Assembly (NCBI RefSeq): GCF_003287285.1
Contig: NZ_QMIG01000001.1
Span: forward strand, 434,001-498,000
Length of the DNA: 64,000 bases
From: Phytoactinopolyspora halophila
GTDB taxonomy: Bacteria; Actinomycetota; Actinomycetes; Jiangellales; Jiangellaceae
Direction of reading: 5' to 3'
Shown: positions 2,755 through 36,375 of the stretch, one piece after another
How the letters are laid out: each line of letters opens with the position of its first letter
Numbering within the stretch: the first letter of the stretch is position 1
The notes under the pieces: model-generated
What the model was told of the DNA's origin: nothing
Seen by the model: only the letters and a program-made list of their open reading frames with translations
Database searches by the model: none
Made by a program: the position numbers and the translations under genes

Positions 2755-5097
2755 TCATGCACGCCGACGCGTGCGGGCCGCCTCGATGAGATCGAGCACG
2801 GCGGATGGTTCCCCCGTATCATCGGCAGCGCCCGCAGGATCGATCGTACGGTCTACGAACGCCACCATCGTCGGATGGATCACCTGGGACGTCTCGGTCA
2901 CGCGCCGGCGCAGGTACTGTGACCAGCCGTCGCCGTGGGCCGTATCCCACTGCTGCCGCGCGACCATGGTCTCCAGGGTGATCCCGAATCCGACTGCCTC
3001 ATCCACCCATTCCGGCGGGGCCAGCACCGCCGGGCGGAACCCGGCGGTGATCTGCGCACGCTCGGCCAGCGCCCGCAGCGTCGGCTCGGCGTCCACATCC
3101 GTGCTGGTGACCACGAGCAACGCGATTGGCAGCCGGTCCGGTGTCGGATGCGTGATCGGAGCTCGCACCGGCAGACTCAGCTCCGCCTTGCTGGCTTCGA
3201 GCAACAGCACGCCCGACGCCGGCGCGAGACGTTCCAGCAGCCGGAGCCGTGCCTGGCGCAGGCCACTCATCCTCCGGCGAGCCCACATCCGTACTCGCGC
3301 CGGAGCCTTGCGGCGCAGCCGCGCCATCGCGCTCGGCCCAGAGCGGGTCGTCGGCGACGCGCTCACCGGCTGGCGCGCCACGGTCCAGCCGTCGGGCAAC
3401 GGCCACTGCGGGACGTTCGCCTCGTCGCCTGCCACGGGCCCCATGGTGGCTGGCATGGGTGGTGCGATCTCGCGCTGCACCCGCAGCGCCTCGATGCCGG
3501 ACCCGCGGGCCGCATCGAGCGCCACCCGCACGTCCTGCGCACTGCCATCGACCAGCACCATCCGGCCCGGGCGGTGCGCGGCGAGCAGGCCCGAGATTCG
3601 GTGAGCGACGTATTGGCGGCGCTCGCCGGCGGACATCTCCGCCAGCACCCAGGGGAACGTCTCGACGGCGACCTCGCCCCCTCTGGTCTCGCGGCGAGCC
3701 TTGCGTTCCATTCGCGAGCGAACCGAGCCGCGGCCCGGCACCGTTGCCGCCTGCTCGCCCAGCTGCGATGCCCGCCAGGCCGGCACGACGACGGCGCACG
3801 TGACGCCCTCCGCCGTCACGTGTTCGACGACGCGATCCAGCAACGGGGCGTCCGTCGTGTCCCAACGCAGGTCAACGACCAATGTCGGTTGCTGCTGCTC
3901 CGGGTCACCCGAGCGCGGGGCCCCCGCACGTTTGTCAGGACGCCCGGACCGGGACTGCCATGGCGTCCGGCGCGACCCCCTGCCCGTTCCCGGAACGGGA
4001 ATCCTCGATGTGCCGCCCGTGGCCGGTGCACCGGACGGCTCACCGATCAGCGTCGCGATACGTTCGGCATGCGTCTCGTAGCTGAACCGTTTCTGCGCCA
4101 GCTCGACCCCCGCCTGCGACCGAGCGGCGAACCCCTCCCAGTCGGCGTACAACTCGTCGACGTGCCGGCGAACGTCCTGCGGCGTGCCGTACAGGCACGC
4201 GTCCCCGAACAGCGGCTCCAGGTAGCGCGGGCCGACGACGACGGCTCCCGCCGCCAGCGCTTCCAGCACCACCCGGCCGAAAGCCTCAATCAGACCCGGG
4301 TGGTGAAAGTAGACGAAGAAGTCGATCGTGGCGAGGAAGTCCCGGGCGGGGATCGAGTTGAACGGGAGATCGACCCAGTTCGGCGGGATCCGGTCGAGGA
4401 TCTCGGCTGGTGCCTGCGTGCCCCCCAGGATTCGCACCCGATACCTGGGATCTGCCGGGTAGGCGGCCAGGATGTCGGCCTTCGTGTTCGGCCACTTGCT
4501 CCAGTGCCCACGGCTGTGCCGGCCGATCACTGGACGGTCCGCGACGAAACACGGGCGATCCACCCGCCAATTGGTGACGTCGATGACGTTTTCCCAATCC
4601 CACGGGAGGATCGGGATCGTCCCCGCATGGTGGCCCAGCGACTCGCGCACACGGGGTCCGATCGGCGCCCACGTGGCCTCCTTGCCAGCCATGCGTTCGA
4701 TCTGGCGATGCACGTGCCGCACGTCGTAGTAGGGCATCACTCCGCGATCGTCACTGGCGACCTGGTTCACCGCCAGCACGACATGATCGACGTCCAGCTG
4801 CGGAAGGCCACGCGGCGGCTCGCTGAAGACGGTGGGATGCCGGGCGAGAAGCAATCCGGCCTCGACACGGTCGGCTCCGAGAACCAGCTCGGCCTTGCCC
4901 TCATCGAGGATCGTGCGAAGCTTCGGCGCGAACGGGCGCGGCTTGCCGAGCACGGGCGACGGCAGATGTAACAGACCGGTCCGGTACCCGGCCCTGTGCT
5001 GTGCCTCGATCTCTTCGACCACACTCGACGTGTTGCCGCCGGGAAACCGGCAGTCGGTGGCCATCAAGACGTCGAACCTCGTCGTTCTACTGGTCAT
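2755..5097 (-). CDS. Large protein with GT4-type glycosyltransferase domain
   Basis: This 780-residue protein has an N-terminal half (about 1-350) that reads as a GT-B glycosyltransferase. It starts DVLMATDCRFPGGNTSS, and the C-terminal Rossmann half contains HPGLIEAFGRVVLEALAAG, whose EX7E pattern is the nucleotide-sugar site of GT4 enzymes. After a low-complexity basic linker (about 355-400) comes a further ~380-residue region (TLVVDLRWDT onward) that I do not recognise; it may be a second GT-like or accessory domain. No signal peptide or membrane helix is evident, so it should act at the inner face of the membrane. It sits between the ATP-grasp gene and a small unknown gene, all on the same strand. 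Confidence 0.75.
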   Translation of the reverse strand: MTSRTTRFDVLMATDCRFPGGNTSSVVEEIEAQHRAGYRTGLLHLPSPVLGKPRPFAPKLRTILDEGKAELVLGADRVEAGLLLARHPTVFSEPPRGLPQLDVDHVVLAVNQVASDDRGVMPYYDVRHVHRQIERMAGKEATWAPIGPRVRESLGHHAGTIPILPWDWENVIDVTNWRVDRPCFVADRPVIGRHSRGHWSKWPNTKADILAAYPADPRYRVRILGGTQAPAEILDRIPPNWVDLPFNSIPARDFLATIDFFVYFHHPGLIEAFGRVVLEALAAGAVVVGPRYLEPLFGDACLYGTPQDVRRHVDELYADWEGFAARSQAGVELAQKRFSYETHAERIATLIGEPSGAPATGGTSRIPVPGTGRGSRRTPWQSRSGRPDKRAGAPRSGDPEQQQPTLVVDLRWDTTDAPLLDRVVEHVTAEGVTCAVVVPAWRASQLGEQAATVPGRGSVRSRMERKARRETRGGEVAVETFPWVLAEMSAGERRQYVAHRISGLLAAHRPGRMVLVDGSAQDVRVALDAARGSGIEALRVQREIAPPMPATMGPVAGDEANVPQWPLPDGWTVARQPVSASPTTRSGPSAMARLRRKAPARVRMWARRRMSGLRQARLRLLERLAPASGVLLLEASKAELSLPVRAPITHPTPDRLPIALLVVTSTDVDAEPTLRALAERAQITAGFRPAVLAPPEWVDEAVGFGITLETMVARQQWDTAHGDGWSQYLRRRVTETSQVIHPTMVAFVDRTIDPAGAADDTGEPSAVLDLIEAARTRRRA

Positions 5098-5108
5098 CGA
5101 ACCTTCCG

Positions 5109-5648
5109 CTACTCAGCGTTGATGTGTGAACGTGACCGTCCCCGCTCCGGGCTCCTCGCCCGACGGCGTATCCCTTCATATACCGTCCGCAGCGGCCTGA
5201 GCCAGCCAGGTCTCCTGTCCCGGCGCGGATGTCGCCGGGCGTCCCGCTCCGCTGCCGCTCGCACCGGCCCGATCCAGGCGCGAGCGCGAGCGGCCTCGAT
5301 CGAGTCCACGGTGTGGACGCGTTCCTGGCCGTACCGGTGCCGGGCTTCCTCGACGACCTCTGGCCGATCGCTGGCGACGTAGCGGCACACGGCCGCGATC
5401 GGCGCGTCGAGATCGTCGATCTCGCCCGCCAGCAATACCGTCGGCGCCCCCGCGACCTCGCATTCGGTCAGTACATCAACGACCGCACCGCTCAGTTGGC
5501 CCGGACCACCGGCCGCTCGCCCCGGCACCAGCACGACCCGCTCGGGTCGCAACCACCGGCGAGGCACGGTTCCGCGCCGCTCGTACCGTCGCAGCGCGTC
5601 GTCCAGGACGAACCACTTCACCAGAGGATGCGGCAGGTAATACGCCAT
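5109..5648 (-). CDS. Hypothetical protein of the glycan locus
   Basis: I do not recognise this 179-residue protein. It opens with an aromatic/basic stretch (MAYYLPHPLVKWFVLDDALRR), has a Rossmann-like middle (VVDVLTECEVAGAPTVLLAG) and ends in a strongly Arg-rich tail. Its stop lies 11 bp before the start of the large glycosyltransferase gene and it is 47 bp downstream of the asparagine-synthase-like gene, so it is probably part of the same operon. The ribosome site is weak. The central part vaguely resembles the second half of the large glycosyltransferase protein (VTAEGVTCAVVV...), so it may be a detached domain of that kind; this is only an impression. Confidence 0.55.
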   Translation of the reverse strand: MAYYLPHPLVKWFVLDDALRRYERRGTVPRRWLRPERVVLVPGRAAGGPGQLSGAVVDVLTECEVAGAPTVLLAGEIDDLDAPIAAVCRYVASDRPEVVEEARHRYGQERVHTVDSIEAARARAWIGPVRAAAERDARRHPRRDRRPGWLRPLRTVYEGIRRRARSPERGRSRSHINAE

Positions 5649-7636: not shown

Positions 7637-10081
7637 ATGAGTGACACCACCCAAGACTCCGTTCCACCCTCCACATCCGAACCGCCCGCCACACCCGATC
7701 CCTCCAACCGCGCGAGTCAACCTGGCCAGGCCGGTGACGTAGACCAGCCCGGCCATGCTGGCGTGCCTCCCGCACAGGACGGGCTCGGCGCCGGTGTCTC
7801 CGGGGTGGAAGCGCGCATCAGCCAGGCTCTCGACCAGCTCCGGAATCTCGACCGCCAATTCCCCGAACTCCGGCACAAGGTCGCGAAACGTGCGCTGGAT
7901 GCCGCTCTCATCTCCGACGCGGCCAGACGTCGCGGGCTCGACGTCGTCCGGCTGACCCAACAGACTCAGATCATCCGGAACGGCTCACATGCCGTCGGCT
8001 TCTACCAGAACATGGCCTCGCCCCTGACGGCGCTCGACCGCTTGCTCACCCATGACAAGCTCCTCACCAAGCAGGTCCTCGCCCAGCACGGGATCCCCGT
8101 GGCACGCGGCCAGATCGCCAGCACCATGGACACGGCCAGCGCGGCGTTCCAGCAGATCGGCCCGCCCGTCGCCGTCAAGCCGATCACCGGGAGCGGGGGC
8201 AAGGGCGTCACCGTCGACGTCTGGGACGAGGCCGAACTGAGGGCGGCGGCCGACGAAGCCTTCACATACAACCACCGATTGCTGGTCGAGGAGATGGTCG
8301 CCGGCATCGATCTGCGCATCATGACCATCGCCGGGCGCGCCGTGGCCGCCATGCTCCGCGTACCGGCCAACGTCGTCGGCGACGGCACGTCCAGCATCCG
8401 CGAACTGATCGAGCAGAAGAACCAGATCCGCGCCGGCAATGCCTATCTCCGGCATTGCCCGATCACCATCACGTCGTTCACCGAACATCACCTCGAACTT
8501 CGCGGGCTGACACCGGACAGCGTTCCGGAAGCGGGACGGCGGGTGTATCTGCACTACAAGGCGAACCTCTCTTCCGGTGGCGACAGCTACGAGATCGTCG
8601 ACGTCGTCCATCCCCGAATCTTGCGGCTCGCCGAGCAGGCAGCCGCACGGGTATCCAGTGCCTACCACGCCGGGGTCGACATCCTCCTCGAACGATTCGA
8701 CCTGCCGCCGGAGGCGCAGCGATGCATCGTGTGCGAGCTGAATCTCAACAACGAGATGCCCATCCACATCTTCCCCCTCTACGGCACGCCGACCGCCACG
8801 GACGACGAGACCATCGAGGGGTACTTCTTCCGGGCACGTACCGAAATCGAACGCGGGCCGCACCGCATCGCTGCTGAGGATCTGGCCACCGGCGCCGGTA
8901 ACGGTAGCGGTGATGGAAGCGACGAGGAGACGACGGCATCTGCGGCACTGCCAGCACCGGCGGCGCGTCCCACACCAGACGAGCTTCCCACGCCAGGCGA
9001 GTTCGCGGCCCCCGTGACGTTCGCGGCTCGATCGGAGGCAACCGCCGGCTCCGGCCGATCCCCCCGCTCTCCCCGCGGCATCGACCAGCATCACCTGCGC
9101 ACGGCGCTGGCACGGGAGGGTTTCGAGCAGGTCGAATACCGTGGCCGGCTCGTCCACGCGGTCCGCGACGGCGCACCGGTAGTGTTCGAGCGCAGCGGGC
9201 GGACCATGTTCGCCTCCGCGGTAGCGCGCACACCGGCCGCGCTGCAGCAGCTGTTGCGCGCTGCCACGCTGCCTGCCGTCGGCCGGCACCGCTTTCACCG
9301 CTCCGGCCTCGACGATGCCCGCGCGGTGATGCAGGAGGCTCCCGGTGCATGGCGGCTGCGCCCGCAGCCGGCCGCCGAGGGCACAGGCTCCGTGCGGGTC
9401 GAGGACGTGGCCGCCCTCGAGCACGCGTGGTCCCGGATGCCTGACGACGGGACGCACGCCATCCTGGAAGAAGCTCCGACCGGCACGTCGTGCACCGTCT
9501 TGATGGTCGACGGCGAACCCAGCGCCACGTCGTTCGCCAGCCCGCCCGGGGTGGTCGGCGACGGCAGCACACCGCTGGGCACGTTGATCGAGAACAAGCG
9601 CGCCGTTCGAGCGCACCACCCGTACTTGCGCCATTTCCCGGTGAAGGAGTCGTTGCTCACCGAACGCTCGCTGGCCCGGCGCCGGCGGCACCGGGACGAC
9701 GTGCCGGCCCACGGCGAGGTCGTACACCTGGCACTGACCCCGCTGATGTCGTACGGCGCCGACACGATCGGCCTCGCCGGCTGTCCGTACCCGGCACTCG
9801 CCGAGCTGTCCGCGCGCCTTTCCGGGGTCCTCGGGCAGCTCCCGATCATGAGCGTCACGTTCGCCTACGTGCCCCGCCCCGGTGGACATACCTGGGCCGT
9901 CTGGAGTCTCGACCCCGATCCGGTCGTCGCCCACTTCGCGCTCCCCGGACATCGGCAGGCCGGCACTCCGAACGGATCAGCTGGCTCGGACGGCGGGCCG
10001 GCCGGCTCGATCGATTCGGTCTACACGGACGTCGCCACGGCACTGGCGAAGAGTTCGCACTATGTCTTGAGCTCGACATGA
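7637..10081 (+). CDS. Tandem ATP-grasp ligase, cyanophycin-synthetase-like
   Basis: This protein of 814 residues has two ATP-grasp modules. The first (about residues 60-370) shows VAVKPITGSGGKGVTV, VVGDGTSSIRELIEQKN and the metal-binding end CELNLNNEMPIHIFP. The second (about 500-790) repeats the plan with VVGDGSTPLGTLIENK and LRHFPVKE but has a less clear glycine loop and no obvious C-terminal acidic metal site, so it may be weakly active or structural. GDGxSxxxELIExxN is typical of cyanophycin synthetase and GshAB-type ligases. A Pro/Ser/Thr-rich N-terminus and a Gly/Thr/Pro-rich linker (about 400-480) flank the modules. ATG at 7637 is the first start that drops an unlikely hydrophobic leader. 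It probably ligates an amino acid to a carboxylate; the substrate is unknown. Confidence 0.75.
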   Translation: MSDTTQDSVPPSTSEPPATPDPSNRASQPGQAGDVDQPGHAGVPPAQDGLGAGVSGVEARISQALDQLRNLDRQFPELRHKVAKRALDAALISDAARRRGLDVVRLTQQTQIIRNGSHAVGFYQNMASPLTALDRLLTHDKLLTKQVLAQHGIPVARGQIASTMDTASAAFQQIGPPVAVKPITGSGGKGVTVDVWDEAELRAAADEAFTYNHRLLVEEMVAGIDLRIMTIAGRAVAAMLRVPANVVGDGTSSIRELIEQKNQIRAGNAYLRHCPITITSFTEHHLELRGLTPDSVPEAGRRVYLHYKANLSSGGDSYEIVDVVHPRILRLAEQAAARVSSAYHAGVDILLERFDLPPEAQRCIVCELNLNNEMPIHIFPLYGTPTATDDETIEGYFFRARTEIERGPHRIAAEDLATGAGNGSGDGSDEETTASAALPAPAARPTPDELPTPGEFAAPVTFAARSEATAGSGRSPRSPRGIDQHHLRTALAREGFEQVEYRGRLVHAVRDGAPVVFERSGRTMFASAVARTPAALQQLLRAATLPAVGRHRFHRSGLDDARAVMQEAPGAWRLRPQPAAEGTGSVRVEDVAALEHAWSRMPDDGTHAILEEAPTGTSCTVLMVDGEPSATSFASPPGVVGDGSTPLGTLIENKRAVRAHHPYLRHFPVKESLLTERSLARRRRHRDDVPAHGEVVHLALTPLMSYGADTIGLAGCPYPALAELSARLSGVLGQLPIMSVTFAYVPRPGGHTWAVWSLDPDPVVAHFALPGHRQAGTPNGSAGSDGGPAGSIDSVYTDVATALAKSSHYVLSST

Positions 10082-10166
10082 GGGACCGGATCGCGGGATC
10101 GTGCACGCAGTCAGGCATAGTGGACCGCGATGTGAGCGCTGGGCGCTCGAACTCGAGGAGGCATGC

Positions 10167-11429
10167 ATGACCGCAGATCTCGCGGTGATCGGCCTGGGCT
10201 ACGTCGGCCTGCCGCTCGCCCACGAGGCGAGTCATTCCGGGCTCACGGTCCGCGGATTCGACGTCTCGCAGGTGGTGGTCGACGAGCTGAACGCCGGCCG
10301 TTCACATATCGACGATCTCAGCGACGACGATGTTGCGGCGATGCTCGCAGCCGGGTTCGAGGCGACCGCCGACCCCAGCGTGCTCGAATCCGCCGACACC
10401 ATCATCATTTGCGTCCCGACGCCGCTGTCCGACGAGGGCGGGCCAGATCTCGAAGCCGTGACGGCCGCATGCCACACGATCGCGGCGCGACTGCAGCGCG
10501 ACACGCTCGTGATCCTCGAATCCACCACCTACCCGGGCACCACCGACGAGGTCGTCGGTCCCATCCTGGAGCGCAGTGGACTCGTCGCCGGAGAGGATTT
10601 TCACCTCGCCTTCTCCCCAGAGCGCATCGATCCCGGCAACAGCGTCTTCGGCATGCGCAACACGCCTAAGGTGGTCGGAGGGCACACGGCGGCCTGCACC
10701 AGCAGGGCAGCCAAGTTCTACCGGCGGTTCGTCGACACTGTGGTCGAGGCCCGCGGCACCCGGGAAGCCGAGACCGCGAAGTTGCTGGAGAACACCTATC
10801 GCCACGTCAACATCGCGTTGATGAACGAGATGGCGCGGTTCTGTCACGAACTGGACATCGACCTCTGGGATGTCATCCGCCTCGCCAAGAGCAAACCATT
10901 CGGATTCCAGGCTTTCTACCCTGGTCCGGGCGTCGGCGGGCACTGCATCCCCATCGATCCCAACTATCTGAGCCACAACGTCCGCGCCCGGCTGGGGTAT
11001 CCGTTCCGGTTCGTGGAGCTGGCCCAGGAGATCAACGCGACGATGCCCGGCTACGTTGCCCAGCGAATCCAGAACAACCTCAACCGCCAGCGCAAGGCAG
11101 TCCACGGTTCCACGGTGTTACTGCTGGGCATCACCTACAAGCAAGACATCGCCGATCAACGCGAGTCTCCTGCCGTACCCGTGGCGAAACGGCTGATGGC
11201 CCTCGGCGCCAACGTGATCTTTCACGATCCCCATGTGTCGATATGGGAGGTCGATGACGTCGTCCTGCAATGCACGCCCGACCTCGACGCCGCCTTGACC
11301 AGTTCCGATGTCACCGTGATCCTTCAAGGGCACCGCGGATACGACGGCGAGATGATCGCCAAGAAGGCCACCAACGTCTTCGACACCCGCGGCATCACGC
11401 CGAACTCCGGTACGGTAGAGCACCTCTAA
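10167..11429 (+). CDS. UDP-N-acetylmannosamine/UDP-GlcNAc-type 6-dehydrogenase
   Basis: This 420-residue enzyme oxidises C6 of a UDP-HexNAc twice with NAD+, giving a uronic acid donor. Features include the NAD loop VIGLGYVGLP (about residues 6-15), FSPERIDPGN, the lysine helix KLLENTYRHVNIALMNE, the catalytic cysteine in GPGVGGHCIPIDPNY (about residue 263) and GITYKQDIADQRESP. FSPERIDPGN and GGHCIPIDP are typical of the WecC/WbpA branch rather than UDP-glucose dehydrogenase. The start at 10167 has GAGGAGG 6 nt upstream. With the UDP-glucose dehydrogenase further right, the locus should provide two uronic acids. Confidence 0.88.
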   Translation: MTADLAVIGLGYVGLPLAHEASHSGLTVRGFDVSQVVVDELNAGRSHIDDLSDDDVAAMLAAGFEATADPSVLESADTIIICVPTPLSDEGGPDLEAVTAACHTIAARLQRDTLVILESTTYPGTTDEVVGPILERSGLVAGEDFHLAFSPERIDPGNSVFGMRNTPKVVGGHTAACTSRAAKFYRRFVDTVVEARGTREAETAKLLENTYRHVNIALMNEMARFCHELDIDLWDVIRLAKSKPFGFQAFYPGPGVGGHCIPIDPNYLSHNVRARLGYPFRFVELAQEINATMPGYVAQRIQNNLNRQRKAVHGSTVLLLGITYKQDIADQRESPAVPVAKRLMALGANVIFHDPHVSIWEVDDVVLQCTPDLDAALTSSDVTVILQGHRGYDGEMIAKKATNVFDTRGITPNSGTVEHL

Positions 11430-31493: not shown

Positions 31494-31680
31494 GTTCTTC
31501 GACCCGGCGCCGCAGATCCCGCAGCGCCGCCAGCGCCCCGTTTAGATGCTCGATCGCGTCGTCCAGCTCACCCACCACCGGACGCCACCGCTCGCTCACG
31601 TCATGCCGTTCCACAAACTCACCCCCGATTGCTGGAGTTTGCGCCAAACCCCGGACACAACCCCCATTTACGACCGGCAC
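31462..31680 (-). CDS. Small hypothetical coiled-coil protein
   Basis: A 72-residue frame from GTG 31680. Its second half (VVGELDDAIEHLNGALAALRDLRRRVEEL) predicts a coiled coil. It overlaps the DUF6907 gene upstream by 13 bp and the convergent XRE gene by 32 bp. A short protein next to an XRE regulator could modulate it, but there is no family match. Real gene status is moderately likely. Confidence 0.45.
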   Translation of the reverse strand: MPVVNGGCVRGLAQTPAIGGEFVERHDVSERWRPVVGELDDAIEHLNGALAALRDLRRRVEELSRDVDGGDR

Positions 31681-31922
31681 GGCCCTAGGTCCCGGTGGTC
31701 AGATACTTGTCGGATCGTGAGCTTACGGGCGGTGCGCTGACCGCCGGCAATGGCCCAGACGCACACCGTGTAGGCGGGACCGTCGGGTAGCTGAATCTCG
31801 CCGACCACGGCGCTGTGTGGGCCAGAATGGCCGGCCCATGGACACGCCCTAGCCGCGACCAGGTGCCCACCGTCCTCGTCTTCGGTCGGCGCCTGCGTGC
31901 ACCAGTCCGGGCACGGCCCCAT
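31668..31922 (-). CDS. DUF6907-like small protein
   Basis: The 84-residue protein has CPDWCTQ near the N-terminus followed by a His-containing segment (CPWAGHSGPHSAVVGEIQL) and ends KLTIRQVSDHRDL. CPxWCT...H is typical of the small actinobacterial DUF6907 proteins, which are frequent next to XRE regulators in mobile regions and whose function is unknown. The start is uncertain: ATG 31922 gives a compact protein, while ATG 32024 would add residues without coding character. A second family member lies at 36061-36375. Confidence 0.5.
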   Translation of the reverse strand: MGPCPDWCTQAPTEDEDGGHLVAARACPWAGHSGPHSAVVGEIQLPDGPAYTVCVWAIAGGQRTARKLTIRQVSDHRDLGPCRS

Positions 31923-31956
31923 GTACGGGTCCCGGTCGAGACGGTCCAGCCATGGG

Positions 31957-32166
31957 CTACTCTGCACCACCCTGCGGCGCGATGCGATCCCGCAGCACGT
32001 GCCCGAGCGCGATCCAGCCTTCATGATCAGTGGCCAGCGTGGGTCCGAAGTTGAGAGCCACCGACTGGCGCCCGGTGAGGACGTCGCGCTCGGGCTCGAT
32101 GACGACTTCGATGTGCTGGCGCTCGTCGAAGCAGACGGCGACGAGAGCCGCATGCTCTCTGCTCCG
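31957..32166 (-). pseudogene. Degraded small hypothetical gene
   Basis: The frame, bounded by stops, reads LVAVCFDERQHIEVVIEPERDVLTGRQ, VALNFGPTLATDHEGWIALGHVLRDRIAPQGGAE. It has clear coding character but no ATG/GTG at a sensible place; only an internal GTG exists. It looks like the body of a small regulator-associated protein that has lost its start. Confidence 0.4.
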
Positions 32167-32283
32167 TTACTGCTCCGTGAGACAGCCGACAAGGGCCATC
32201 AACCAACAACGACAGTAAACGGCTTATGTGCTGGTCAGAACGACATCTCGGAGAATCGGTGCAGGTGGCGATCGCCATTCCGT

Positions 32284-32326
32284 AGATCACCCAGATCTAC
32301 GAGGGCACCAACCAGATCCAGCGCCT
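32284..32326 (+). repeat. attR-like 43-bp direct repeat
   Basis: Identical to 26943-26985 over 43 bp, same orientation. An in-frame TAG (32283-32285) directly precedes the [12 protein letters not shown] reading frame, so this copy is a displaced gene end and not part of an intact gene. Confidence 0.75.
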
Positions 32327-32370
32327 CGTCATGGCGAGACAACTACTCAAGGGCAACGCCCGACCAGTTC
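32286..32370 (+). pseudogene. Displaced 3' end of acyl-CoA dehydrogenase gene
   Basis: The frame reads [29 protein letters not shown]. Protein identity to the intact gene's end continues about ten residues beyond the exact DNA repeat, through synonymous codons. It is probably the original chromosomal end of the gene, cut off when the element inserted and carried in a substitute end. Confidence 0.65.
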
Positions 32371-32463: not shown

Positions 32464-33408
32464 TCATGTGCCCAGGGGAATGTTGTCGAGGACGCCGAGA
32501 GCATCGGGCACCAGGACGTCGAGAGAGTAGTAGGCACTGATCAGGTAGTGGATGACGCCGTGGTGGTCGATACCCATGAACCGCACGTTCAGGCTGGGCT
32601 CCCATTCATCAGGCAGTCCGGTCTGATGCAGACCGATGACCCCCTGATCTTCCTCACCGGTGCGAAGAACGATCACGGAGGTGCTGCGCCGCTCAGTGAT
32701 AGGAATCTTCGAGCACGGAAACACGGGCACGCCACGCCATGCCGGGACCCGGTCACCGTCGACGTCCACGAACTCCACGGTGAGTCCGCGCCGGGTGCAT
32801 TCCTGACCGAGCGCGACGATCGCCTTCGGATGCGCCAACAGCATGTGGGGGTTGCGGCGCCGGCCGAGAAGCTCGTCCAGATCGTCGAGGAGGGTAGTGC
32901 CGTCATGGGCGGCCAGACGATGTTCTGGGGTGGCAACGTGAAGCAGCCCGATGTCGCCGTTGTTGACCATCTCGTATTCCTGACGTTCTCGTAGCGCCTG
33001 GATGATCAGCAAGATCTGCTGCTCGATCTGGTTGTACGGGCCGTTGTAGAGATCGGCGATCCGCGAGGGAACACGCAGGATGGTCTGCGCCGCGTGCAGA
33101 TCGTGCTCGGGCGGATCGGGATCGTAGTCGACGAACGCGGCGGGCGTCGGCGCGCCGTCGAGTTGCCCGGCCACGATGTCGATGTCGATCTCGCGACCAT
33201 CGGGGGCGGTGACAGTCTGATTGCGGCGGTAGGTGCCACCGGTGGCCTCGACCCAGGGCAAGCGTCGCAACAGCCATCGCGATGTGATGCTGGGCATGTA
33301 CGGCGCGGACTTGGTGGTGGTGGCCAGCGTCCGGGCCGCGTCCGGGCTCAGGCCGCTCGGGGCGTGGCCATCACCAGTAACGGCGTCCGTAGAGAGCAGA
33401 TCGGTCAC
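32464..33408 (-). CDS. Family 2 encapsulin shell protein (2A-like, no cNMP-binding insertion)
   Basis: The 314-residue protein shows the HK97-fold Family 2 encapsulin (SrpI-like) signatures: ITSRWLLRRLPWVEATGGTYRRN, SRIADLYNGPYNQIEQQ, RERQEYEMVNNGDIGLL (about 140-157), VLRTGEEDQGVIGLHQTGL and NVRFMGIDHHGVIHYLISAYYSLDVLVPDALGVLDN. It should assemble into a protein nanocompartment. Its length matches Family 2A shells; the inserted cyclic-nucleotide-binding domain of Family 2B is absent. GTG at 33408, with AAGGAGGG upstream, overlaps the terpene cyclase stop by 3 bp (GTGA), so shell and cyclase are translationally coupled. The N-terminal ~20 residues form a flexible Gly/Ser arm. The cyclase is the obvious cargo. 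Confidence 0.9.
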   Translation of the reverse strand: MTDLLSTDAVTGDGHAPSGLSPDAARTLATTTKSAPYMPSITSRWLLRRLPWVEATGGTYRRNQTVTAPDGREIDIDIVAGQLDGAPTPAAFVDYDPDPPEHDLHAAQTILRVPSRIADLYNGPYNQIEQQILLIIQALRERQEYEMVNNGDIGLLHVATPEHRLAAHDGTTLLDDLDELLGRRRNPHMLLAHPKAIVALGQECTRRGLTVEFVDVDGDRVPAWRGVPVFPCSKIPITERRSTSVIVLRTGEEDQGVIGLHQTGLPDEWEPSLNVRFMGIDHHGVIHYLISAYYSLDVLVPDALGVLDNIPLGT

Positions 33409-35660
33409 GACGACCCTCCTTCGGTGTGGGCGGTAGCGAGGCGGTGCCCGCCTCCGGGCGGGCGAACGTGGGCGGCGGCGGTGCCGAGGCCAGCCGGCCG
33501 ACTCAACCGCTGGCGGCGCAGGTGCCCGCCGCGAGCGTGGACGGCATCGGGCCAATATCGGTTACAGGTGACGTGCCAATGATGGATACCCGTCATCCAG
33601 TTCTGCAGGTCCGTCACCAGTTGGGCGAGCCCATCCCGCGCCTCGGAATCGAGGTGGAGCCGGTGGACCAGGGCGGGAAGATCGTGGTTCACGATGTGCC
33701 GGAACTGACGCAGCCGGGCCCGCATGAGCTCTGCGGTAGCTTCCATAGCCCGAGGGGTGTCGCAGTCGAGGAACCGCTGGATCACCAGCACCCCGTTGAG
33801 CGTCTCGCCTTCCACGTGGAGCTCCTTGTCATAGGAGCAGAGGTCGTTCAGCAGACAGGCATAGTCCTGCGCGGCTATTTCCAGCTCCCGGACGACGCCG
33901 CTGTGATACACGTCGTCCGGGATGCGCGTTCCGAGGTCGATCCGGGACAGGGTCATCGTCATGTCAGCCCCGAAGGTGAGGCGGCGCATTTCCATGTAGT
34001 CGACAGGGTCCGGAACCTGTCCCGTGCTGTTGTGCATGAACTCCCACAGGTGGCTGTCCAGCCAGCGCACCACGGCCTGGCGGAAACGTTGCCGATCGGG
34101 CGTGGGCATGTCGACGATGGCGCGGGCCCAGGTGTCGGCCAGGCCGCGTTCCGCCGGGTTGGTGCACGCCGGGACCTGACCGCCATCCAGCGGCATGAAC
34201 TGGTACAGCCGATCGAGAAACGCCCGAGCTGCGGGCTCGTCTCGGGGATGGCGGAACATCGACGGAAAGCCATCGTCGATCCACGTGGGCCAGATCAGCC
34301 ATTCGGTGGACAGCTCCAACTGCTCCGCGGACGCGGATGGATGCATCGCCGCCGCGCAGAGCGCGAAATCGAAGCCGCGCAGCGCATCCTCGGTCCAGAT
34401 GTCGCTGCCGGCGACACCCGGCACCGGATCCAGCAAGCCCAGCCGCCGTGCCCAGCTCAGGGACGCGTCACGAGCATGATCCAGGTGAGGGTTGGTGTGC
34501 AGCGCGAAGGGCAACGGCGGCAACGATGGCATAGCCCCATATACACGCGCGGTCCGTCCAGGGCGCCGACGTGGGTGGGGTGCTGTCGGCGGAGGGAGCA
34601 GCCGCGCGGCAGCCGTGCCGTATCCGGCATGGACGCCGATCGCCGCTTGTGGCGGCGGCAGGTGACGGGTCGCGGCATTCATGTAGCGCGACGAGCGACG
34701 ATGCCATTCGTGGCCTCCTGATTGCCAGTCCCGCAACGCCTGGACATACCGGTGAACACGCTCCCGCTCGGCAGGCAGCAATTCGTCATGCTGCCGCATC
34801 AACGCGGGCAGCTCCGAGGCGACAGTCTGCTCGAACAGCTGCATGCGCGAGGTGAGCAGATCGTTGACGAGATCGGCCGCCTGTTGTGGATCACAGTCGA
34901 AGAACTGCTGGGTGACCCACACGCAATTGTTTAACTCGCCTTCTTGGTCGAGTTCACGCTGATAAGAAAACAGATCGTTGCGCAGGTGCACGCCGTCAGC
35001 GAAGGTGTCGGTGATCACGCGCAGCGGACGCGACGCGGCGAGCGCGGGTGGCAGTTCGGCGTTCGCAGCGTGTTCGGCCAGCGCGGCTGACCAGGGGGCG
35101 CCACCGACCTTGCGGCGCAGCTCGATGTACTCCAGTGGGTTCGGAGTACGCTGCTGCGCTCGATTGGCCAGTTCGGTCAGGGATTCGTCCAACAACTCCC
35201 GGGTGGTCTGCGCGAACCGTTCCCGCCACCGTCGTGACGTGCCGGGAACGGTTCGAGTCCACAGATCTGCCAGACCACGCTCGACACTGGTGTGCGCCAC
35301 AGCAGCCGGCCGGCCATCCAGGGGCATGAACGCGGACAGCCGCGCCAGATGGTCAGCCGCACCCGCCATGTCGCCCGTGTGCTTGAACGCGGCCAGGAAA
35401 TAGTCATCGAAGTAGAACACCCACACGTACCAATCCGTGACCAGTTCGAGTTCCGGACCGCTCGCGTCGGGATGGGCATACGCGCACAGCAGCGGGTAAT
35501 CGTGCGAGTCGAGATCGTGCTGAGTCCAGATGGCCCCGGGACTTCCAATCATGCCCATGTCGTGCGCCCATTCGATGCTGTGCTGCCGCGCTGCAGCCAG
35601 ATGCGGATTTAGCCGAGCGATGTAGGGCATGTGGAATTCCGGCAGCGAATATGGTGGCAT
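33405..35660 (-). CDS. Two-domain terpene cyclase (geosmin-synthase-like), putative encapsulin cargo
   Basis: The 751-residue protein has two class I terpene cyclase domains, like germacradienol/geosmin synthase. Domain 1 carries FDDYFL (Asp85-86) and the Mg triad NDLFSYQRE (228-236). Domain 2 carries IDDGFP (462-463) and NDLCSYDKE (605-613). The opening MPPYSLPEFHMPYIARLNPHL matches geosmin synthase, but metal motifs differ from the usual DDHFLE and DDYYP, so the product may differ. A Pro/Arg-rich linker (330-378) and the C-terminal tail (714-751) each contain AGxGTAAA (345-352 and 723-730), a candidate shell-targeting repeat. ATG 35660 is chosen: GGGAGA lies about 9 nt upstream and upstream codons lack homology. 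The stop overlaps the encapsulin start. Confidence 0.9.
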   Translation of the reverse strand: MPPYSLPEFHMPYIARLNPHLAAARQHSIEWAHDMGMIGSPGAIWTQHDLDSHDYPLLCAYAHPDASGPELELVTDWYVWVFYFDDYFLAAFKHTGDMAGAADHLARLSAFMPLDGRPAAVAHTSVERGLADLWTRTVPGTSRRWRERFAQTTRELLDESLTELANRAQQRTPNPLEYIELRRKVGGAPWSAALAEHAANAELPPALAASRPLRVITDTFADGVHLRNDLFSYQRELDQEGELNNCVWVTQQFFDCDPQQAADLVNDLLTSRMQLFEQTVASELPALMRQHDELLPAERERVHRYVQALRDWQSGGHEWHRRSSRYMNAATRHLPPPQAAIGVHAGYGTAAARLLPPPTAPHPRRRPGRTARVYGAMPSLPPLPFALHTNPHLDHARDASLSWARRLGLLDPVPGVAGSDIWTEDALRGFDFALCAAAMHPSASAEQLELSTEWLIWPTWIDDGFPSMFRHPRDEPAARAFLDRLYQFMPLDGGQVPACTNPAERGLADTWARAIVDMPTPDRQRFRQAVVRWLDSHLWEFMHNSTGQVPDPVDYMEMRRLTFGADMTMTLSRIDLGTRIPDDVYHSGVVRELEIAAQDYACLLNDLCSYDKELHVEGETLNGVLVIQRFLDCDTPRAMEATAELMRARLRQFRHIVNHDLPALVHRLHLDSEARDGLAQLVTDLQNWMTGIHHWHVTCNRYWPDAVHARGGHLRRQRLSRPAGLGTAAAHVRPPGGGHRLATAHTEGGSS

Positions 35661-36060: not shown

Positions 36061-36375
36061 CTACGGCCGTCTAGGCCTGACGTGCTGTGATCTGGTGTAC
36101 TGAAGATGCGCGTCGACCAACAGGCTGATCAGTGTCTTGACAGCTGGCCAGGTCAACGTCGTCGCACTATGGGGCCGGTGACCCCGGTACCCCACCGCGA
36201 GGACCAGTTGCGGATCCCGTTCGCCTGGCGCGGCGGTGAGATAGACCGAGATAACCATCTCGCCGGACTCGACGTCGCCGATGGCGCGGACGTGTCGGTG
36301 GCCAGCATGGTGATTCTGTGTACACCAGCGAGGACAGCCTGAGTACTCCTCGACAGTGTCGATGTCTCCGGTCAC
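36061..36375 (-). CDS. DUF6907 small protein
   Basis: The 104-residue protein has CPRWCTQNHHAGHRHVRAIGDV near the N-terminus and VYLTAAPGERDPQLVLAV, then a helical end LTWPAVKTLISLLVDAHLQYT. CPxWCTxxH and the order of segments match DUF6907, a small actinobacterial family of unknown function that often sits beside HTH regulators. The Cys/His cluster could bind zinc. GTG at 36375 is preceded by GAGAGG. It lies 400 bp upstream of the terpene cyclase on the same strand. Confidence 0.65.
   Translation of the reverse strand: MTGDIDTVEEYSGCPRWCTQNHHAGHRHVRAIGDVESGEMVISVYLTAAPGERDPQLVLAVGYRGHRPHSATTLTWPAVKTLISLLVDAHLQYTRSQHVRPRRP

What the first reader, a model, noticed from the sequence alone, without database searches (positions are those of the whole stretch)
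32464..35660. Two-domain terpene cyclase translationally fused in expression to a Family 2 encapsulin that lacks the cNMP-binding domain
The cyclase stop and shell start share GTGA, and the two genes form an isolated operon, so the cyclase is the obvious cargo of the shell. From memory of published surveys, terpene-cyclase-loaded encapsulins are Family 2B, whose shell carries an inserted cyclic-nucleotide-binding domain and whose cargo is a single-domain 2-methylisoborneol-type cyclase. Here the shell has the short 2A form and the cargo is a tandem geosmin-synthase-like enzyme. This would be a terpene nanocompartment without nucleotide control and with two active sites.
Basis: partly seen in the sequence, partly recalled or inferred. 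Interest (0 to 1): 0.88.

Follow-up and report, generated by a model that had tools for sequence, protein, structure and literature searches.

The report
Terpene-enzyme nanocompartment with stripped-down shell
A soil-type actinobacterium carries a two-gene operon for a geosmin-synthase-like enzyme and the protein shell that probably packages it; the shell belongs to the known terpene-compartment lineage but has lost the domain that normally sits over its pores, an unusual natural deletion that could help reveal what that domain does.

Summary
A 751-aa two-domain geosmin-synthase-like (GS-like) cyclase (35660..33405, minus) and a 314-aa encapsulin shell (33408..32464, minus) overlap by GTGA.

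Two-domain GS-like cyclases are already published as Family 2B cargo, and shell-linked GS-like cyclases proved common here. The shell is not ordinary 2A: it fails NCBIfam's 2A cut-off (297 vs 380), its closest solved relatives are 2B shells, and its E-loop retains both 2B flanks with the cNMP-fold domain (CBD) cut out cleanly. "Without nucleotide control" is moot, because encapsulin CBDs are reported not to bind cyclic nucleotides; they sit over the two-fold pores.

New here: seven genomes of another actinobacterial family also carry CBD-less shells of 2B lineage, always as a second shell beside another shell gene (CBD-bearing in six, truncated at a contig end in one), and in six of seven with a GS-like cyclase. 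Cyclase trees indicate several independent losses. The window has the only lone CBD-less shell found; its genome holds no other.

Best reading: a self-assembling, CBD-free terpene-cyclase encapsulin. New variant of a known kind. Shell assembly, cargo loading and product are untested.

The parts
33405..35660 (-). two-domain geosmin-synthase-like terpene cyclase (751 aa), putative cargo
   Evidence: Pfam PF19086 twice; NCBIfam f2_encap_cargo3 986 bits, full length, below its cut-off of 1200; N-domain matches geosmin synthase 5dw7/5dz2 at E 1e-124
32464..33408 (-). Family 2 encapsulin shell protein without the CBD (314 aa, GTG start)
   Evidence: Pfam SrpI-like; f2b 423.5 bits vs f2a 297.5 bits, 2A cut-off 380; closest PDB relatives are 2B shells 9bhu/9bje/9bix
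33405..33408 (-). GTGA stop/start overlap coupling cyclase and shell
   Evidence: sequence; same kind of overlap (GTGA or ATGA) in L169, L170, L172, L173
33415..33421 (-). AAGGAGG Shine-Dalgarno of the shell gene, inside the cyclase 3' end
   Evidence: sequence
33163..33228 (-). shell E-loop: point where the CBD sits in 2B shells; junction DGR|EIDI between P0001 residues 73 and 74 (about 33193/33192)
   Evidence: alignment to 2B and 2A shells; N-arm-to-core distance 68 aa vs 216-226 in 2B and 67-71 in 2A
34602..34625 (-). GYGTAAAR, degenerate copy of the GPTGLGTSAAR motif in the disordered inter-domain linker
   Evidence: linker pLDDT <50 at 328-375; motif published in PMC8346489
33468..33491 (-). 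GLGTAAAH, second copy of the putative cargo-loading motif in the disordered C-terminal tail
   Evidence: tail pLDDT <50 at 715-751

Best explanation
The operon encodes a terpene-cyclase encapsulin of the Family 2B lineage. The cyclase is made first. Its GTGA stop re-initiates ribosomes on the shell gene, so cargo and shell are made together (overlap shown; coupling inferred). GLGTAAA-type motifs in the disordered linker and tail bind the inside of the shell (inferred from the published motif). The shell, which has lost the E-loop CBD, assembles alone, presumably as a T=1 particle; it carries the RRR form of diagnostic motif 1 seen in Sl-Enc2, the component shown to self-assemble. FPP reaches the cyclase through shell pores. 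In 2B shells the CBDs partly cover large two-fold pores, so losing them should leave these open, or they were narrowed by compensating changes near the E-loop. The product is probably a geosmin-like sesquiterpenoid, but the fast-evolving active sites make geosmin itself uncertain.
For: Shell family and closest 2B structures. E-loop keeps the 2B flanks T..DGR and EIDIDIVAG with only the CBD missing. At columns fixed differently in 2A and 2B the window has the 2B state in 6 of 8 and the 2A state in none. Tree nests it in core 2B, 98/99 support. Cyclase has DDxxx and NSE motifs in both domains and two GLGT-like motifs in disordered segments. CBD-less 2B-lineage shells beside GS-like cyclases in six further genomes, with the same kind of gene overlap where examined, and four of these CBD-less shells evolve under purifying selection, NG86 dN/dS about 0.24-0.33. 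Only one shell in the genome. RRR diagnostic motif and self-assembly of Sl-Enc2, CBDs over two-fold pores: PMC12407261.
Against: Nested placement rests on a long branch (1.18 vs median 0.18); AU tests do not reject the window lying outside CBD-bearing 2B (p 0.364 and 0.204). The shell departs from 21 of 111 near-invariant 2B positions, more than any CBD-bearing core 2B row, several of them conserved in 2A too; the cyclase departs from 25 of 214, also the most of any row. Altered constraint or decay is possible. The AlphaFold model of the shell is poor (pLDDT 57), so the fold and E-loop were not confirmed structurally. No relative of the shell exists in the other 21 genomes of the order. Nothing was shown experimentally.
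Confidence: 0.72

Rival explanations
1. The window operon is the reduced remnant of a two-shell operon (Enc1-cyclase-Enc2 without CBD): Enc1 was lost, leaving the partner shell, which may be non-assembling or decaying.
For: All seven other CBD-less shells sit next to another shell gene, CBD-bearing in six and truncated at a contig end in G828; the window matches the 3' half of that operon in order and overlap; both window proteins depart most from conserved positions.
Against: Both ORFs are intact, coding-like, with a strong SD and intact catalytic motifs. The window cyclase does not group with those of the two-shell CBD-less operons (AU p 0.0002). Single-shell GS-type operons with cyclase before shell also exist (L122).
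Confidence: 0.2
2. The shell is an ancestral form that split off before the CBD was inserted into the 2B lineage, i.e. a link between 2A and 2B.
For: AU tests cannot exclude it from outside the CBD-bearing rows; it has more residues seen only in 2A (11) than control rows (1-3).
Against: Best tree nests it within 2B. Two deeper-branching 2B-type rows lie between 2A and core 2B, one of which (L121_4006) has the CBD-length E-loop. At 8 fixed 2A/2B differences it never has the 2A state. Other CBD-less shells show that the CBD is lost repeatedly.
Confidence: 0.06
3. The cyclase is not encapsulated; the two proteins share an operon but the shell holds another cargo or is a non-loaded capsid.
For: Canonical geosmin synthases of Streptomyces work without a linked shell and some carry similar GPGTSA/GLGT stretches, so the motif alone does not prove loading; the first motif is degenerate in the window.
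Against: Direct translational overlap, GS-like/shell linkage across families and phyla, and published loading of terpene cyclases in 2B shells (cited in PMC12407261).
Confidence: 0.12

Closest known systems
Family 2B encapsulins with GS-like terpene cyclase cargo (PMC8346489)
   Same: shell sequence lineage, two-domain cyclase cargo, GLGT-type motifs, operon linkage
   Different: no CBD in the E-loop; single shell; cyclase upstream of shell with a GTGA overlap; both proteins unusually divergent
Two-component Family 2B shells such as S. lydicus Enc1/Enc2 (PMC12407261; 9bje, 9bix)
   Same: HK97 core clearly homologous along its whole length, RRR-type diagnostic motif 1 as in Sl-Enc2
   Different: only one shell gene in the genome and no CBD
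Enc1-GS cyclase-Enc2(no CBD) operons of the f17 family (loci L169, L170, L172, L173, L189; variant order in L171; L168 at a contig end), found here
   Same: CBD-less 2B-lineage shell, GTGA/ATGA coupling to a GS-like cyclase
   Different: they keep another shell gene in the operon; cyclases fall in other clades; longer E-loop linker remnants (NxxGE)
Family 2A encapsulins (SrpI, MMP-I; 6x8m, 8t6r)
   Same: E-loop without inserted domain, similar length
   Different: about 40-45% identity, cysteine desulfurase cargo, clearly separate in the tree; window fails the NCBIfam 2A cut-off

Membership tests
Family 2 encapsulin | SrpI-like HK97 shell sequence | tested here: met
   PF19307 347.5 bits vs cut-off 22.8
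Family 2 encapsulin | assembles into icosahedral particles | not testable with these tools
   needs expression and microscopy; AlphaFold model too poor to use
Family 2A | no cNMP-fold domain in the E-loop | tested here: met
   no PF00027; N-arm-to-core distance 68 aa
Family 2A | sequence placement with 2A shells / NCBIfam encap_f2a cut-off | tested here: not met
   297.5 bits vs cut-off 380; outside the 2A clade
Family 2A | neighbouring cysteine desulfurase cargo | tested here: not met
   partner is a terpene cyclase; no desulfurase among the flanking genes scanned
Family 2B | cNMP-fold domain inserted in the E-loop | tested here: not met
Family 2B | sequence placement with 2B shells | tested here: met
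   f2b 423.5 vs f2a 297.5 bits; the true 2A shell SrpI also passes the f2b cut-off, so the order of the two scores is what counts; tree support 98/99 but AU tests inconclusive
Family 2B | terpenoid enzyme cargo in the operon | tested here: met
   GS-like cyclase overlapping the shell gene
GS-like encapsulin cargo (NCBIfam f2_encap_cargo3) | two terpene synthase domains with metal-binding motifs | tested here: met
   DDYFLA/NDLFSYQRE and DDGFPS/NDLCSYDKE
GS-like encapsulin cargo (NCBIfam f2_encap_cargo3) | curated score cut-off 1200 | tested here: not met
   986.5 bits over the full length: divergent relative
GS-like encapsulin cargo (NCBIfam f2_encap_cargo3) | GPTGLGTSAAR motif between domains and at the C-terminus | tested here: met
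   GYGTAAAR (degenerate) and GLGTAAAH

The most novel reading that the evidence does not exclude
CBD-free shells are a distinct, recurrent working form of the 2B lineage: tied to GS-like cyclases, arisen independently several times, usually mixed with a CBD-bearing partner but here sufficient alone, giving a homomeric terpene compartment with uncovered two-fold pores. This would show that the CBD is dispensable for assembly and loading and would point to it as a pore cover.
Probability: 0.5. Interest if true: 0.62.

Novelty: new variant of a known kind. Interest (0 to 1): 0.52.

Why it matters
The function of the CBD of 2B encapsulins, one of the most abundant encapsulin groups, is unknown. 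A natural lone CBD-less shell and seven CBD-less partner shells are nature's deletion experiments: they allow a test of whether the CBD controls assembly, pore access or cargo activity. They also break the rule that presence or absence of the CBD defines 2B versus 2A, so surveys that classify by domain alone will misfile such shells.

Tried and rejected
Considered and dropped: ordinary 2A shell (scores and tree); phage capsid (SrpI-like at E 1e-104; only a trace match to a phage MCP model); assembly or frameshift artefact (continuous ORF, precise in-frame junction, 566-kb contig). G300 looked CBD-less by ORF length but is a scaffold gap (Ns) inside the CBD; G763, G780 and G855 are shells cut by contig ends. 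The relatives in the whole-collection scan nearest to the window shell all carry the CBD. Grouping of the window shell with PT-type Streptomyces shells was not stable when more rows were added, so I draw nothing from it. The f2b score above its cut-off is not by itself evidence, because SrpI also passes. AlphaFold of the shell gave pLDDT 57 and was not used for fold searches. A single origin of all CBD-less shells is not rejected by the shell tree (AU p 0.469) but is by the cyclase tree for their operons (p 0.0002). The 2024 paper on encapsulated 2-MIB synthase was not held.

Full report
OBSERVATION. The cyclase runs from ATG 35660 to TGA 33405 (751 aa). The shell starts at GTG 33408, 6 nt after AAGGAGG, and ends at 32464 (314 aa). 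Protein P0001, used in searches, has one extra leading residue. Both genes have the base composition by codon position of real genes.

WHAT THE SHELL IS. Pfam finds only the SrpI-like HK97 shell domain, E 4e-104, and no cNMP-binding domain. NCBIfam gives encap_f2b 423.5 bits (cut-off 400) and encap_f2a 297.5 bits (cut-off 380, not reached). A caution: the true 2A shell SrpI also passes the f2b cut-off, but with f2a far ahead (535 vs 430), so it is the order of scores that matters. The best solved relatives are the 2B shells 9bhu, 9bje and 9bix; they align in two pieces, roughly residues 18-73 and 74-313 of the window shell, with the CBD lying between. The E-loop retains both 2B flanks (T..DGR and EIDIDIVAG) and nothing between them. 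The distance from the N-arm motif to the core is 68 aa, as in 2A (67-71); it is 216-226 in the 2B shells measured, apart from one sequence interrupted by a run of undetermined bases, and no intermediates were seen in that set. At eight columns fixed differently in 2A and 2B, the window has the 2B residue in six and a third residue in two.

TREE. With the CBD columns left out, the shell falls inside the core 2B clade (support 98/99), on a long branch (1.18 vs median 0.18). AU tests do not reject placing it outside the CBD-bearing rows (p 0.364 and 0.204), so loss of the CBD is favoured but not proved by the tree. Two 2B-type rows branch below core 2B, and one of them, L121_4006, has the CBD-length E-loop, so loss is also the simpler story.

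WHAT THE CYCLASE IS. Two terpene synthase domains; NCBIfam f2_encap_cargo3 ("family 2 encapsulin cargo terpene cyclase") matches over the full length at 986 bits, below its cut-off of 1200. The N-terminal domain matches germacradienol/geosmin synthase structures. Aspartate-rich and NSE motifs are present in both domains. AlphaFold predicts two confident helical domains and disordered stretches at 328-375 and 715-751, which hold GYGTAAAR and GLGTAAAH, counterparts of the GPTGLGTSAAR motif that PMC8346489 proposed as the cargo signal.

WHAT IS ALREADY KNOWN. PMC8346489 states that Family 2 cyclases fall into 2-MIBS-like (one domain) and GS-like (two domains), in 2B operons. My own searches found GS-like cyclases next to CBD-bearing 2B shells in many actinobacteria and in a cyanobacterium. 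So the tandem cargo is ordinary.

WHAT IS NEW. Searching 343 genomes of family f17 and 347 of its order, a largely overlapping set, turned up seven genomes with CBD-less shells that match the query in one piece (G940, G807, G933, G922, G828, G934, G878). They score f2b over f2a (six checked) and keep 2B linker remnants such as NxxGE. Each sits beside another shell gene; in six this is a CBD-bearing shell, and in G828 it is truncated by the contig end. In five the order is Enc1, GS-like cyclase, CBD-less Enc2; in G878 it is Enc1, CBD-less Enc2, cyclase; in G828 no cyclase is visible. Of five junctions examined, four are cyclase/Enc2 junctions with GTGA or ATGA overlaps, as in the window. Four of these CBD-less shells have NG86 dN/dS of about 0.24-0.33, so they are maintained. 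Their cyclases fall in different GS clades, and one clade of all of them with the window cyclase is rejected (AU p 0.0002); the shell tree needs five changes by parsimony, though one origin is not rejected there (p 0.469). The nearest reading is repeated CBD loss in GS-type operons. The papers I could read do not describe CBD-less 2B-lineage shells; PMC8049743 says only that the CBD is "predominantly" found in 2b.

WHY THE WINDOW STANDS OUT. It has one shell gene, CBD-less, in a nearly complete genome, whereas every other CBD-less shell found has a partner shell gene. It carries RRR at diagnostic motif 1, the form of S. lydicus Enc2, which assembles alone, while Enc1 does not (PMC12407261; alignment). 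Both proteins are unusually divergent: 21 of 111 near-invariant 2B positions changed in the shell (highest of CBD-bearing core rows: 11) and 25 of 214 in the cyclase (next highest 15). That can mean adaptation to life without the CBD, a changed product, or relaxed constraint; I cannot tell. No other genome of the order (21 checked) has a Family 2 shell, so the operon was gained by transfer or lost by its relatives.

MECHANISM. Shown: gene order, overlap, families, missing CBD, catalytic motifs. Inferred: translational coupling, self-assembly, loading through the GLGT motifs, substrate entry by open two-fold pores, sesquiterpenoid product.

Noticed in passing
loci L168-L173, L189 (genomes G828, G940, G807, G878, G933, G922, G934): CBD-less 2B-lineage second shells beside another shell gene; six of the seven sit with a GS-like cyclase.
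   Followed up: yes
cyclase tree; loci L052, L056, L059, L060, L062, L063, L065, L067, L068, L071-L073: Unlinked geosmin-synthase-like genes of Streptomyces-like genomes form a group nested among shell-linked GS-like cyclases (92/87 support), suggesting free geosmin synthase may descend from an encapsulin cargo.
   Followed up: partly
window 31671-32192 (-) and 36064-36375 (-): Two weak DUF6907 matches (E about 0.005, below cut-off) in the same orientation on either side of the operon; possible duplication or insertion scar.
   Followed up: no
window 32286-32348 (+): Short remnant resembling the acyl-CoA dehydrogenase C-terminus ([21 protein letters not shown]), 18.9 bits, below the Pfam cut-off; suggests a rearranged region downstream of the shell.
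   Followed up: partly
L121 (G567), 4006-5460 and 9252-10793: One contig carries two 2B-type shells of different kinds: one beside a GS-like cyclase, and a deep-branching one near an ORF cluster shared with cysteine desulfurase loci.
   Followed up: no
genome G000, contig C59 136182-136772 (locus L004): The genome's only other match to Terpene_syn_C_2, single-domain, about 25% identical to the window cyclase; the genome's only shell gene is in the window.
   Followed up: no
NCBIfam models NF041163 and NF041162: The f2b cut-off of 400 is also passed by the genuine 2A shell SrpI (429.6 bits), so naming by f2b alone can mislead.
   Followed up: yes
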